Shown: positions 27,095-33,260 of the stretch, in pieces
How positions within the stretch are numbered: the stretch's first letter is position 1
Layout of the letters: every line of letters begins with the position of its first letter
Origin: Clostridia bacterium
Lineage (GTDB): Bacteria; Bacillota; Clostridia; Oscillospirales; CAG-382
Direction of reading: 5' to 3'
DNA: 64,000 nt
Assembly (NCBI GenBank): GCA_017560085.1
Contig: JAFYPA010000064.1
Coordinates: 1-64,000, forward strand
Made by a program: the position numbers and the translations under genes
The notes under the pieces: generated by a model
Seen by the model: the letters and a program-made list of their open reading frames with translations, nothing else
Database searches by the model: none
Told to the model about the DNA's origin: nothing

Positions 27095-27123
27095 TTGCAA
27101 AATCTCAAAAAGTGTGTTATAAT
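27095..27123 (+). promoter_or_regulatory. Promoter of the giant gene/mreB unit
   Basis: TTGCAA, 17 bases, TATAAT, about 60 bases before the chosen ATG at 27187. Confidence 0.75.
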
Positions 27124-27186: not shown

Positions 27187-30100
27187 ATGACAAACAAGGC
27201 TTCAGATGCTTCCCTCACAATTGTTCCGGTAGTGGCTCCCGTATATACGGCGGCTCATTTTTACAGCGGTATTCCGATTATCAAAAACGTTGTTATAAAG
27301 AATATTCCGAGCTCTCTGTGCGGCTGTCTTTCTCTTGCGATGGAGGCAAGAAGCGCAAATGCCGAGGTATTCAGCATAAAGGTTAATATTGCGGATTTTT
27401 CCCTTTCGCAGTATACTTCGGAAAATTCCGACACGGTTATTCTGAATCTCGAAAAGCATAAAATACTTCCGAATTCCGCATTTATGCACGAGCTTTCGGC
27501 TAATGCGGGTATCAGAATTCAGACGGTGATTACCGTGGGAGACGTTACCGCCTCCTGCGTTCAGACGGTTAAGATTTCTCCCTTCGGGCATATCTGTCCC
27601 GAAATGCCGCCCGAGCTTCTTTGCACGTACGTGCTTCCCGACTGCGAATTTGCTTCCAAGGTGGAAAAGAGACTTTCCGCTCAGGTGAAGAAAATCACGG
27701 AAAGACTCAAGAGGCAGGCTCCCCGTCCTCTTGTTTACGCAGAGGCGATTGCCAACGTTATGCTTTCCGCAAAGCTTACATATTCCGCAATGCACAGAGA
27801 AATGCTTGACGGTGACTGCATTATCCGTGACCCCGACACTCTTGTGGATTCCAACAAGAGAACGGTCAGCCTTACGGAGGCGGCTTTGTTTTACTGCTCC
27901 TGCGCAGAGAGATGCGGACTTCATCCCGGTATAATTTTCCTTCGCAAGGGTGCGGGCTCTGTCAAGGTGCTTGTCAGCATCGGACTTTCCGACTACTTCC
28001 CCGGAAGTCCCGTGAGCGAGAGCATATCCGAGCTTCGTGAGAGAATTCTCGACAGAGAGATATTTGTTTTCGATGTGCTCGGTCTTCTCGGTACGGAGGA
28101 TATGGACTTTGAAAGAAATGTTACGGAGACCACAAATCTTGTTCTTAAGAGCAGTTCTACGCTTATTTTCTCCGTAGACGTATATACTTCAAGGCTTTGC
28201 GGTGTTGCCTCGCTCCGTCCCTTTGACAGAGGTGTGGCGAAGGATATTTACGGTGGATACAAGAGCATAGAGGAAACCGTCAAGCGCATATGCGGGAATG
28301 CGGATTCCGCTTCGGTATTCGGCTTCTCGCCCTACAGCTTTACCTCGCTCGGTCTTTGCGTAAAGCCGAATGAGCTTGTATTCTCGCAGGAGTACACAAT
28401 CTGTCCTCTTGACGATGAAATAATATCCGCGGAATCGGATGCGATTCTCAGCTTCAGCAGCTTCCGTCCGAGAAATCTTGCGGAGAATCCCAGAAATATG
28501 AATCAGCAGGCTGTCTTTGAAGCAAAGCTCGGTGAGCTTCGCGAAAGGACGGAGAATGCTGTTGGCAAGGGTACCGTTTACGGCTATCCCGCAAAGTACA
28601 TTCTTTCCGGCGAAAAGCTTTATGCGGAAAGAATAAGAGAGGAGCTTTACTCGGATGCGGTTAAGCTTTGCGAGGCTGTAAGGGCTTCAAGGCTTCTTTG
28701 CGGCAACACGGAGATATATGTTGCTGCGGGAATTATCGCTATAGCTAACGAGGGCAGAGTTTCTTATGCTCCCTGCGCTTACATTCCCTGCGAGATAATA
28801 TTTGAAAACAGAACCGCGGTACTGAAATTCGGTACGGACAAAACGGTTATCAACACAAGTCTTATAAGTCACATCGAAAAAACGACGGGTGCAAGCTACA
28901 ACACAAGAGTGCAGACCTTCTTCGAGGAGAATCCAACTCTTGACAGCTCGGATAAGGCCACTGAGCTTTCCGCTTGTCTTTACGCCTTTGAAGGCATCTG
29001 CGAGGATTATCCCGATTCGCTTCGCTTTATAAACGATACGCTTCTTTCCGTTTTCGATCTTTCCTACACTCTTATGAGAGACTGTCTTGAGGACTCGGGA
29101 AGCGGTAAATTTGAGCAGTTCGTTGAGAGCGGCAAATATTCCTGCTGTGAAAATCCCGCCTCCCCATACGGTCGTCTTGAGGCTACACTTCCCTTTGATG
29201 TTCCCTCGGAGGTGAGAAATGCTGTAAAGGCGGCTGAAAATGACAGCATTATAATCTCGGGCGTTCACGGTACCGGCAAGAAGAAGGCTCTCGGAAACAT
29301 TATTGCAAGGGCGGCTCTTTGCTCGGAGGATGTGCTTGTCTGCTCGAAATATTCCGAATCGCTTGATTCGCTTTACGATACCATGGCTAAGGGCGGTATA
29401 GGTGAGCTTTGCCTTGATGCACAGAGAATCGATTCCGTGCGGACACAGATTCTTGCCGACCTTGAAAATGTGCTTTCGGATGCGGAATATCCCGCGGGAG
29501 CTCCCGAAAAGGATGCCTGCGCTCTTGAGCACACACTTTCAGCTTATGCTGACGACCTTTACTCCGAATTCGGATTCGGATATTCCCTTTACGACTGCAT
29601 TGACAGCTACTGCAAATGCGAGCTTTGCTGCACCGACGAGCCTATAGAGCTTATTCTTGACGTGCGTGACCTTTCAAGGGCGGGTGCGGATGAGCTCTTC
29701 TCTGTGGCAGACAGTCTTTGCGAAAAGGCTGCCGAGATTTACGCACTTTCAAAGAAGGGTGCATACGACATCGGTGACAGTCTTAAATACATAAAGAACA
29801 CAAACAAGATTCCGGAGGATATCTGCGAGCTTTTCGGAAAGGCTTCGGATGAGCTTGGTATTCTTGCTCAGAAATCAGCCTTTGCAAGAGGCTGTCTCGG
29901 AATGTCCGAGGCGGGAATTCCCGATGTAAGGACTCTTATTTCGCTTGGTGAATTCCTTGAGCTTATTATGAAGTCGGGCATTGATTTTCTTCCCGAGGGG
30001 CTTCTTTGCACAAGCACATACAGAAGCTCAAAGAGCATCGAAAAGGCTTGCGGAATCATTGACGAGATAGGCACTCTCAACGCATCTCTTTCGGGAGTAT

Positions 30101-32202
30101 CCGAGAGAATCGCTTCGATTTCCTGCACGGCACTCTACATAAAGTGGAAGGATGCGGAGAACAATCCCTTTGTAAAGAACAGCATTTCTCACGAAATCAG
30201 GAAGTATCTCCCCGAAAAGACAAAGCTCAGCTCAAAGGAAACGGAGGAGCTTCTTGAAAAGCTTTCAAAGAGAGAGGAGCTAAGACGAGAGCTTGCGCTT
30301 GTGCTTTCGGAGGTTTCCTCAAGTCTCGGCACGATATGGCAGAATGAGGAGACGGACACCGAGCGTGCAAGAAGAATCGCCGAGTTTGCGCTTTCCGCCG
30401 ACATATGCATAAAGAAGCTGTTCAGAAGCTCCAACGAAAATCTTTCCGAGCTTCACAGCGGAATCACAAGACTTATAACCGCGCTTTCCGAGGACAAGAG
30501 CACAAATGCCGATTTCGTGGCGGCTGTAGCTGCGTTCAGAAGGCTTTCAAACGAAAAAGGCGGTCTTCTCAACGAGCTTTCCGAGGCTCTTTGCATTGAC
30601 CTTTACGAGCTTCGCTTCCCCGAGGGAATTCTAGGAAAGGACGGACTTTCTCAGATGCTTCGTGCATTCCGTGAAAATCTTCAGCCCTTTGCAACCCTTC
30701 ACGAGCTTAATGCACTCAAGAAGGAGGCGGCGAGAATCGGCCTTGCAGACGTGGTTTCCTACATTGAGGGAAATCCCGTTGGAGAATCAACAAAGACGCT
30801 TATACACAAGAGCATTTATCTTGCTTTTGCAAAATATATTATCTTCTCCAAGATACACCTTGTAGGCAACGAGCTTTCCGAGACCTGCAAGAAATACACG
30901 GAGGTATACTTCTACGAAAAGAAGCTTGCAAGATTCAATCTTATCTCCGCACGGAGAAAGAAATTCAGAGATTACATCTCCGGGGACGAGGGCAAGCGCG
31001 AGCTTTACGCACTGAGGAAGTCTCTTTCCGACAAGTCTGTGTCGCTGACGGAGCTTCTTGAAAATCACGCGGGAATTCTTCGTGTTATGTACAGCGCGGT
31101 ATTCGTTCCGCTTTCAACCGCTTACAGGCTTCGTAATCACCGCAGTGTGCTTGTTCTCACGGACTGTGAGAAAACCGATGCCTGCGAGGCTCTTCCCCTT
31201 TGCACGGGATACGACAAGTGCATTTTCGTAAGCTCGCCCTTTGAAAGAGCGGGAAGCATTATGGCTTCGCTTCCGCTGGGAATTCCCACCTTCAGGCTTA
31301 CAAGGGTGCTTCCCGAAAAGAACGGCTATATTGCGGATTTCGCAAGGAGCCTTTACCCCGACTGCGTAAGCTTTATCTGTAAGGACAGAACGGAAAGGAC
31401 TCTGAACTACGTAAAATGCGTGGGCGGTCTTTACGACAAGAACAGCAAGGCAAACAAAATAGAGGCGGTGCAGGTTTGCGAGACGGCACTTATCGCCGCA
31501 AGAGAGCACGGCTTTGAAAATGTCGGAATAATTGCTATGACCTACGGTCAGGCGTCGGAAATTATGAGCGGTCTTTCCATACTTGCCAACAAGTATTCGG
31601 ACGGCAGAATTGCGGATATTCCCGTAAGATACATCGGAAGCATCGGCGACTTTTCAAAGGACTGCATCGTGCTTTCGGTTGCATTCGGAAAGAATGTTTT
31701 CTCCTTCACCAGAAGCTTCGGTATAACCGACGATATAAGCCTTTCTCACGGCTCGGCACCGTTCTGTATGTCTGAGCTTCTGTGCTGTGCAAGGGTGCTT
31801 TATGTTGTCGCAAGTGCGGAGCCCGAGGATATTATGACGGATAATCTCTGTCTCGGTGCTTCGGCGGTTTCGGCTCTGCTTTACTTTGCAAAGCTCGGTG
31901 CGGTTCAAAGACCCGCATTGCATAATAAGACATGTGACACACAGAGCGGAATAGACGGCAGAATAAGAAGGGAGCTTTGCGACGGCTTCTGCCATAACCC
32001 TTTCTTTGGCGGTGTGGGAATTGCCACACACAACGGCAGGGCAATAATATACGAAAACGGATATATCAGAGATGCATACGACAGAGTTGTGCTTCCCATT
32101 CTTGAGGCACAGACACGAGGCTACGAGCCCTGCTTCTCGGATATATGCGGACTTATAAACAACAATTATTCGGCGGATAGCGAAAATCCGTCGAGGAAAT
32201 GA
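27187..32202 (+). CDS. Giant degenerate SF1-helicase-like protein (DUF4011-helicase-nuclease architecture), probably catalytically inactive
   Basis: 1671 residues; the ATG at 27187 has GAAAGG upstream and replaces an in-frame start before the promoter. Its order matches large helicases carrying a transglutaminase-like N-domain and a Vsr-like nuclease C-domain: residues about 215-250 read LTEAALFYCSCAERCGLHPG (family: C-L-D-LA-LF-A); 689-700 IISGVHGTGKKKAL is a Walker A with Lys where Thr/Ser belongs; 1321-1329 VLVLTDCEK stands where the D-E-A-S Walker B should be; 1500-1570 hold helicase-like segments (VGIIAMTYGQASEIM, DCIVLSVAFGKN); the tail (GVGIATHNGRAIIYENGYI) resembles the nuclease fold without its acidic set. 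The middle is helical. Its last four bases overlap mreB as ATGA. The homology is my reading by eye; the function is unknown. Confidence 0.7.
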   Translation: MTNKASDASLTIVPVVAPVYTAAHFYSGIPIIKNVVIKNIPSSLCGCLSLAMEARSANAEVFSIKVNIADFSLSQYTSENSDTVILNLEKHKILPNSAFMHELSANAGIRIQTVITVGDVTASCVQTVKISPFGHICPEMPPELLCTYVLPDCEFASKVEKRLSAQVKKITERLKRQAPRPLVYAEAIANVMLSAKLTYSAMHREMLDGDCIIRDPDTLVDSNKRTVSLTEAALFYCSCAERCGLHPGIIFLRKGAGSVKVLVSIGLSDYFPGSPVSESISELRERILDREIFVFDVLGLLGTEDMDFERNVTETTNLVLKSSSTLIFSVDVYTSRLCGVASLRPFDRGVAKDIYGGYKSIEETVKRICGNADSASVFGFSPYSFTSLGLCVKPNELVFSQEYTICPLDDEIISAESDAILSFSSFRPRNLAENPRNMNQQAVFEAKLGELRERTENAVGKGTVYGYPAKYILSGEKLYAERIREELYSDAVKLCEAVRASRLLCGNTEIYVAAGIIAIANEGRVSYAPCAYIPCEIIFENRTAVLKFGTDKTVINTSLISHIEKTTGASYNTRVQTFFEENPTLDSSDKATELSACLYAFEGICEDYPDSLRFINDTLLSVFDLSYTLMRDCLEDSGSGKFEQFVESGKYSCCENPASPYGRLEATLPFDVPSEVRNAVKAAENDSIIISGVHGTGKKKALGNIIARAALCSEDVLVCSKYSESLDSLYDTMAKGGIGELCLDAQRIDSVRTQILADLENVLSDAEYPAGAPEKDACALEHTLSAYADDLYSEFGFGYSLYDCIDSYCKCELCCTDEPIELILDVRDLSRAGADELFSVADSLCEKAAEIYALSKKGAYDIGDSLKYIKNTNKIPEDICELFGKASDELGILAQKSAFARGCLGMSEAGIPDVRTLISLGEFLELIMKSGIDFLPEGLLCTSTYRSSKSIEKACGIIDEIGTLNASLSGVSERIASISCTALYIKWKDAENNPFVKNSISHEIRKYLPEKTKLSSKETEELLEKLSKREELRRELALVLSEVSSSLGTIWQNEETDTERARRIAEFALSADICIKKLFRSSNENLSELHSGITRLITALSEDKSTNADFVAAVAAFRRLSNEKGGLLNELSEALCIDLYELRFPEGILGKDGLSQMLRAFRENLQPFATLHELNALKKEAARIGLADVVSYIEGNPVGESTKTLIHKSIYLAFAKYIIFSKIHLVGNELSETCKKYTEVYFYEKKLARFNLISARRKKFRDYISGDEGKRELYALRKSLSDKSVSLTELLENHAGILRVMYSAVFVPLSTAYRLRNHRSVLVLTDCEKTDACEALPLCTGYDKCIFVSSPFERAGSIMASLPLGIPTFRLTRVLPEKNGYIADFARSLYPDCVSFICKDRTERTLNYVKCVGGLYDKNSKANKIEAVQVCETALIAAREHGFENVGIIAMTYGQASEIMSGLSILANKYSDGRIADIPVRYIGSIGDFSKDCIVLSVAFGKNVFSFTRSFGITDDISLSHGSAPFCMSELLCCARVLYVVASAEPEDIMTDNLCLGASAVSALLYFAKLGAVQRPALHNKTCDTQSGIDGRIRRELCDGFCHNPFFGGVGIATHNGRAIIYENGYIRDAYDRVVLPILEAQTRGYEPCFSDICGLINNNYSADSENPSRK

Positions 32203-33260
32203 GAGTGCGGATGAACGGTTCATGGTATGTTGGTGTAGACCTCGGCACGGCAAACACTCTGGTTTACACAAGGGACAAGGGCATCACCGTAAACGAGCCC
32301 TCGGTTGTCGCCTATGAAAAATCAACCTCGGAAATCATTTGCGTAGGTACCGCCGCAGAGCGTATGATAGGTAAAACTCCCGCGGGAATAGGTACTGTGT
32401 ACCCTCTTCGCGGAGGCGTTATTGCGGACTTCGAATTCTGTGCGGAAATGCTGTGCGAATTTCTCAAGAAGGGTGCGGGCTTATTCCCCGGAGTGCGTCC
32501 GAGGGTGATAATTTGCGTTCCCTACGGGATTTCCGAAATTGAAAGGCGTGCGGTGCTTGATTCCGCGACAGATGCGGGAGCAAGGTCGGTTTATGTTTTC
32601 GACGAGCCTCTTTGTGCCGCTATCGGTGCGGGACTTCCCGTTTTGGGCTCTAAGGGCTGTATGGTGGTTGACATCGGTGCGGGCACGACTGAAATTGCAG
32701 TAATTTCCCACGGGGGAATTGTTACCTCGGACTCCTTCAAGATTGCGGGAAACACGCTTGACAATGCGATTATTTCTTATATAAAGCAGGAATTCAACGT
32801 GCTTATAGGTGAGGCAAGCGCAAGAGACATAAAGGAAAAAATCGGCTCGGCTCACACGGGCTCGGATATAGGAGCAATTGAGGTCAAGGGACGCAATATG
32901 CGTGACGGTAAGGCGGCGGAATTCGTGCTGTACTCCGCTGAGGTACGCGAGGCGATTACAGAATCGCTGGACTCTCTGTTTGAGGCTGTCCGCTCCGTGC
33001 TTGATTCCACTCCGCCGGAGCTTTGTGCGGACATTTACGATTCGGGAATTATGCTCACGGGAGGCGGTGCGCTTCTTGGTGGTCTTGACGTTTATCTTCA
33101 CGAGAGAACAAAGCTTCCCGTAATGGTTGCGGAAAGAGCTTCCGAGTGCGTTATCGGCGGAATAGGCAAGCTTATCCGTGACGGTGCTCTTCGCGAAAAA
33201 ATAGAAAAAATGGTAATTCACGCATCCGACGATGCTATGCAATTCCCGAAAATACAATAA
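32199..33260 (+). CDS. mreB: Rod-shape determining protein MreB-like actin homologue
   Basis: 353 residues with all actin-fold nucleotide motifs: VGVDLGTANTLVYT (phosphate 1), VVDIGAGTTEIAVIS (phosphate 2) and GIMLTGGGALLGGLDVYL (adenosine). MreB polymerises under the membrane and guides lateral wall synthesis. The ATG at 32199 overlaps the giant gene stop as ATGA; an ATG at 32211 is also possible. Unlike the usual locus there is no mreC or mreD beside it, and the partner is instead the pseudo-helicase; tsaB follows 16 bases on. It could be a second, specialised MreB/Mbl copy. Confidence 0.92.
   Translation: MRVRMNGSWYVGVDLGTANTLVYTRDKGITVNEPSVVAYEKSTSEIICVGTAAERMIGKTPAGIGTVYPLRGGVIADFEFCAEMLCEFLKKGAGLFPGVRPRVIICVPYGISEIERRAVLDSATDAGARSVYVFDEPLCAAIGAGLPVLGSKGCMVVDIGAGTTEIAVISHGGIVTSDSFKIAGNTLDNAIISYIKQEFNVLIGEASARDIKEKIGSAHTGSDIGAIEVKGRNMRDGKAAEFVLYSAEVREAITESLDSLFEAVRSVLDSTPPELCADIYDSGIMLTGGGALLGGLDVYLHERTKLPVMVAERASECVIGGIGKLIRDGALREKIEKMVIHASDDAMQFPKIQ

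What the first reader, a model, noticed from the sequence alone, without database searches (positions are those of the whole stretch)
27187..33260. A 1671-residue pseudo-helicase translationally coupled to an mreB gene
Seen: the protein follows the domain order of large DUF4011-type helicases with a transglutaminase-like N-domain and Vsr-like tail, but every catalytic signature I can place is altered: Walker A reads GTGKKK (no Thr/Ser), the Walker B region reads LTDCEK, the N-domain Cys position is Ser, and the nuclease-like tail lacks its acidic set. The reading frame is nonetheless intact over 5 kb with a good promoter, so it is selected for. Its stop overlaps the mreB start as ATGA, and mreC/mreD are absent. 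Inference: an exapted helicase scaffold working with an MreB filament, a possible undescribed cell-shape or defence module.
Basis: partly seen in the sequence, partly recalled or inferred. Interest (0 to 1): 0.78.

Follow-up and report, generated by a model that had tools for sequence, protein, structure and literature searches.

The report
Dead anti-phage helicase paired with MreB
A very large protein descended from an anti-phage helicase has lost every helicase catalytic motif, yet gut Clostridia keep it intact next to the gene for the cell-shape filament MreB; across its family it is found only in genomes that have MreB, which suggests an undescribed cell-shape (or MreB-guarding) partner protein.

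Summary
ORF 27187-32202 (1671 aa) overlaps mreB (32199-33260) by ATGA. The protein is a full-length but remote homologue of the DUF4011/MTES_1575 anti-phage helicase ProA (hhalign E=5e-128, residues 8-1671). All canonical SF1 motifs are degraded. The P-loop keeps GTGK but lacks Ser/Thr in this genus, and is erased in other genera. Motifs II, III, IV and VI are gone; the motif V Asp remains.

The pairing is not a local accident. In 13 of 13 assemblies where the contig allows a check (four genera), the gene lies directly upstream of mreB, although the gene after mreB differs (tsaB or gpmI). In a 63-genome family it occurs in 14 of 15 MreB genomes and in 0 of 47 without MreB; MreC follows the same pattern. 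Whole-length dN/dS is about 0.08-0.09. Homologues elsewhere in the class keep active motifs and are not next to mreB. The mreC gene is present, but elsewhere.

Best explanation: an exapted, helicase-dead scaffold acting with a dedicated, faster-evolving MreB in elongation. No interaction or phenotype has been tested. A guard/defence role is possible but less likely: the neighbourhood is housekeeping and the gene is core. Structure prediction added only weak support.

The parts
27187..32202 (+). MreB-linked pseudo-helicase, 1671 aa, degenerate ProA/DUF4011-type SF1 helicase
32199..33260 (+). mreB (353 aa), start overlaps upstream stop as ATGA; actin motifs DLGTANT, DIGAGTTE and GGGALLGG present
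27095..27123 (+). extended -10 promoter-like site (TTGCAA-17-TATAAT) 64 bp before the start codon
   Evidence: consensus match only, not above chance for the region as a whole
29260..29283 (+). P-loop remnant GVHGTGKK (residues 692-699): Lys kept, Ser/Thr replaced by Lys
31156..31173 (+). motif II remnant LTDCEK (residues 1324-1329), in place of FDEASQ
27868..27873 (+). position of the lost transglutaminase-like Cys (Ser228-Leu229)
31924..32199 (+). C-terminal region matching the MTES_1575 (PD-(D/E)XK/Vsr-like) nuclease, partly degenerate
   Evidence: fold of the equivalent region of L082
33277..34044 (+). tsaB, downstream neighbour of the pair in this genus and in g6, replaced by gpmI in g3 and g8; probably not part of the module

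Best explanation
An ancestral ProA-like nuclease-helicase came to lie upstream of mreB in one Clostridia (Oscillospiraceae-type) lineage, lost its ATPase/helicase motifs, and became a dedicated, probably translationally coupled partner of MreB. It is most likely a large soluble adaptor or scaffold of the elongation machinery (MreB-MreC) that uses the retained RecA-like, helical-insert and nuclease-like folds as binding surfaces, possibly still contacting nucleic acid, for example linking MreB filaments to the nucleoid. Shown: homology, motif loss, conserved pairing, co-occurrence with MreB and MreC, purifying selection, faster evolution of the linked MreB. Inferred: physical interaction, loss of ATPase activity, role in shape.
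For: Full-length homology to ProA. Motif residues invariant or nearly so in 10 active ProA-type homologues are lost in the 10 mreB-linked proteins, apart from the motif V Asp and the P-loop Lys of some. Pair adjacent in 13 assemblies of four genera (g1, g3, g6, g8), with tsaB downstream in g1/g6 and gpmI in g3/g8. In the family the gene is in 14 of 15 MreB genomes and 0 of 47 without (Fisher p=5e-13, not corrected for phylogeny; by genus 4/4 vs 0/9, p=0.0014); MreC is in 13 of the same genomes plus the stray G048. dN/dS 0.086 and 0.079, with no relaxed region. Linked helicases and linked MreBs each form one clade (SH-aLRT 99). The linked MreB diverges faster than the second MreB of the same genomes (G000-G001 68% vs 88% identity). 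Neighbourhood is housekeeping.
Against: No experiment or structure shows contact with MreB. Co-occurrence could reflect one shared loss along the family tree; I did not build a species tree. The P-loop Lys and motif V Asp survive in the window protein, so weak nucleotide binding is not excluded. The core structure prediction was unusable (pLDDT 42).
Confidence: 0.6

Rival explanations
1. Guard/defence protein: a ProA-derived immune sensor, now without catalysis, that monitors MreB, which some phages target, and acts through the coupled filament or an unknown effector.
For: Nearest characterised relatives are anti-phage proteins ProA, PDC-S37 and Hhe. Degenerate relatives in family f17 sit directly after genes like Shango SngABC in four genomes. 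The protein diverges fast between genera (about 20% identity) as immune proteins do.
Against: Core, apparently vertically co-inherited distribution; no defence genes among the flanking genes tested; co-occurrence with MreC; dN/dS 0.08-0.09 with no diversifying region.
Confidence: 0.17
2. Nucleic-acid-binding regulator of mreB or of chromosome-MreB coupling rather than a scaffold of the wall machinery: the dead helicase still binds DNA or RNA.
For: RecA2-like and PD-(D/E)XK-like folds appear retained; P-loop Lys and motif V Asp kept in the window protein; overlapping start and stop codons.
Against: Motifs that contact nucleic acid and nucleotide (III, IV, VI) are lost; net charge -28 to -50 in the linked proteins checked.
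Confidence: 0.15
3. Merely a decaying gene hitchhiking upstream of mreB for its promoter.
For: Helicase motifs are lost; the overlap leaves mreB no intergenic space for its own promoter.
Against: Intact frames of 1569-1671 aa in ten genomes and dN/dS 0.08-0.09 over the whole length.
Confidence: 0.03
4. Still a weak ATPase/nuclease using a non-canonical site, i.e. a divergent active ProA.
For: GTGKK in genus g1; acidic column kept in the nuclease-like tail.
Against: P-loop erased in the other genera; motifs II, III and VI gone.
Confidence: 0.05

Closest known systems
Anti-phage protein ProA (NCBIfam NF058533; PADLOC PDC-S37), DUF4011-MTES_1575 SF1 helicases
   Same: Full-length co-linear homology, N-domain through nuclease-like tail.
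   Different: Helicase motifs lost; about 215 C-terminal residues including DUF3320 missing; next to mreB; core rather than accessory; scores 160 bits against a cut-off of 1500.
Hhe (DUF4011 anti-phage protein, NF042953)
   Same: Shares the P-loop region weakly.
   Different: E=3e-7 over 85 residues only.
UPF1-like SF1 helicases
   Same: RecA2-like segment of a relative matches UPF1/Aquarius, Z 4-7.
   Different: No catalytic motifs.
MreB-associated proteins RodZ, MreC, MreD
   Same: Possible role as an MreB partner.
   Different: No sequence relation found; no clear transmembrane segment in the window protein.
Degenerate ProA homologues of family f17, after Shango-like SngABC and before a small membrane protein (DUF3792/TIGR04086)
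   Same: Similar length (about 1675 aa); transglutaminase-like Cys and most of motif VI also lost.
   Different: P-loop mostly kept; no MreB in those genomes; separate clade.

Membership tests
SF1 helicases (active) | Walker A GxxxxGK[S/T] | tested here: not met
   GVHGTGKK in the window protein; erased in g3 and g6
SF1 helicases (active) | Walker B DE in motif II | tested here: not met
   LTDCEK; Glu column unaligned
SF1 helicases (active) | Motifs III (Q), IV (R) and VI (R) | tested here: not met
ProA / DUF4011 helicase homology superfamily | Co-linear full-length homology | tested here: met
   hhalign prob 100, E=5e-128, 1533 columns
ProA equivalog (NF058533) | Score over curated cut-off (1500 bits) | tested here: not met
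   160 bits; active homologue G092 scores 2106
MTES_1575 nuclease | Pfam match and conserved acidic residues | tested here: not met
   No Pfam match in the window protein; one conserved Asp column deleted, one acidic column kept
PD-(D/E)XK fold of the C-terminal region | Fold match | tested here: inconclusive
   C-terminal model of relative L082, local pLDDT about 80 in a poor overall model; best Z 8.2 to 3hrl
MreB | MreB profile over cut-off | tested here: met
   PF06723 408.8 bits over 27; TIGR00904 379.8 over 365.75
Anti-phage function | Protection against phage | not testable with these tools
   needs plaque assays

The most novel reading that the evidence does not exclude
A catalytically dead nuclease-helicase of immune origin has become an obligate component of the bacterial elongation machinery, physically bound to a dedicated, co-evolving MreB: an immune-to-cytoskeleton exaptation.
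Probability: 0.4. Interest if true: 0.88.

Novelty: new variant of a known kind. Interest (0 to 1): 0.72.

Why it matters
No MreB partner of this kind turned up in the open-access papers searched. If the link is physical, a giant anti-phage helicase scaffold was recycled into cell-shape control, and the gene's presence marks which members of a family retain MreB and MreC. It gives a concrete, testable target for how MreB is organised in Clostridia, where RodZ was not confidently found.

Tried and rejected
Pfam and PDB sequence searches with the window protein alone gave nothing meaningful; the viral capsid VP3 matches are noise. Viral contigs held no relative. AlphaFold2 of the core 431-1480 with six rows failed (pLDDT 41.7), so no fold search was run on it. 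The C-terminal model of relative L082 is also poor overall (54.8); Foldseek found nothing at E<=0.001. The literature gave Shango and DUF4011 context (PMC10250203) but nothing on PDC-S37, an anti-phage ProA or an MreB-linked helicase. The RodZ search with HTH_25 was uninformative: short weak matches in genomes with and without MreB. Decay (pseudogene) was rejected by dN/dS.

Full report
Observation. ORF 27187-32202 encodes 1671 aa and its stop overlaps the mreB start (32199) as ATGA, with GAGGA just upstream of the mreB ATG. The window lies on G000:C53 of a 3.1-Mb draft genome; the protein is single-copy there.

What the protein is. Pfam finds nothing over a cut-off, but NCBIfam matches anti-phage ProA (4.7e-47, 160 bits, cut-off 1500) and PADLOC matches PDC-S37 (4.8e-21). 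An active relative, G092, scores 2106 bits as ProA and carries DUF4011, AAA_11/12, MTES_1575 and DUF3320. Profile-profile alignment of ten mreB-linked proteins with ten active ones covers residues 8-1671 against 1-1696 of 1915 at E=5e-128. It is therefore a ProA-type protein lacking the C-terminal ~215 residues.

Catalytic motifs. The motif residues are invariant in the ten active proteins (one motif VI Arg is Lys in one of them). In the linked set, motif I becomes GTGKK in this genus and is erased or scrambled in g3 and g6; the motif II DE pair and Gln are gone; III, IV and VI are gone, apart from single residues such as one motif VI Arg column in g3; the motif V Asp is kept in nine of ten. 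The transglutaminase-like Cys and His columns are lost (a single His remains in one row). In the nuclease-like tail one Asp is deleted but another column is acidic in eight of ten, so I call helicase loss firm and nuclease loss probable.

Pairing with mreB. In G000, G001, five g6 genomes, three g8 and three g3 genomes the gene lies directly upstream of mreB on the same strand. In g8 the gene is split by contig ends (G008, G028) or a frameshift (G019), probably draft artefacts; in G035 linkage cannot be checked. Downstream neighbours are tsaB (g1, g6) or gpmI (g3, g8; recognised from its sequence only), so the pair persists while the context changes. Gene content of the 63-genome family: pseudo-helicase in 14 of 15 MreB genomes (the exception, G032, is 75% complete and shows only the second MreB) and in 0 of 47 genomes without MreB; MreC in 13 of the same genomes plus G048, whose 4-kb mreB-mreC contig may be contamination. 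Two other genomes, G042 and G046, hold matches to the profile that are not this gene (an active ProA-type protein and a 921-aa frame). The counts are not corrected for phylogeny.

Selection and trees. dN/dS is 0.086 (G006/G034) and 0.079 (G024/G015), with every 200-codon window that gave an estimate at or below 0.153; more distant pairs have saturated dS. Linked helicases form one clade (99) apart from the f17 and active clades, with long branches; linked MreBs form one clade (99) separate from the second MreB. The linked MreB diverges faster than the second copy (68% vs 88% identity between G000 and G001) and carries clade-specific changes, such as the change of two Gly that are conserved in the 27 others.

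Controls. Fifteen homologues taken from across the class keep the P-loop GPPGTGKS, DEASQ, YRS and the motif VI consensus, and none has mreB in the fetched flanks. Family f17 has an intermediate clade with the Cys and most of motif VI lost but the P-loop mostly kept; its genomes lack MreB, and in four of them the gene follows genes that look like Shango SngABC (tested by PADLOC in G117). Shango is a published three-gene anti-phage system, and in P. aeruginosa PA14 a large multi-domain helicase lies in the same hotspot beside it (PMC10250203).

Structure. The core model failed. In the C-terminal model of relative L082 the last 90 residues (pLDDT about 80) match PD-(D/E)XK-type proteins (best Z 8.2) and residues 130-210 match UPF1/Aquarius RecA2 (Z 4-7). 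The model is poor overall, so this is weak support, in line with the sequence result.

Interpretation. Conserved pairing, co-occurrence with MreB and MreC, strong constraint and loss of catalytic motifs are best explained by a non-catalytic MreB partner. The immune ancestry leaves a guard role open. Neither has been tested.

Noticed in passing
L114-L120, L125-L127 (family f17): Degenerate ProA homologues followed by a small membrane protein in nine of eleven loci (DUF3792/TIGR04086 in the ones tested), and in G117, G078, G157 and G279 preceded by what looks like Shango SngABC (PADLOC-tested in G117): another conserved, unexplored module.
   Followed up: partly
L077 (G000:C92): Second, separate-clade MreB in the same genome, more slowly evolving than the linked MreB.
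   Followed up: partly
L156 (G048:C117): 4-kb contig with mreB-mreC in a genus whose other members lack both; possible contamination.
   Followed up: no
L065:12347: Frameshift splitting the pseudo-helicase of G019; probably a draft error, but all four g8 assemblies are interrupted in this gene.
   Followed up: no
family f1: Nine of thirteen genera lack MreB and MreC altogether (one stray genome apart), suggesting loss of the elongation machinery within one family.
   Followed up: no
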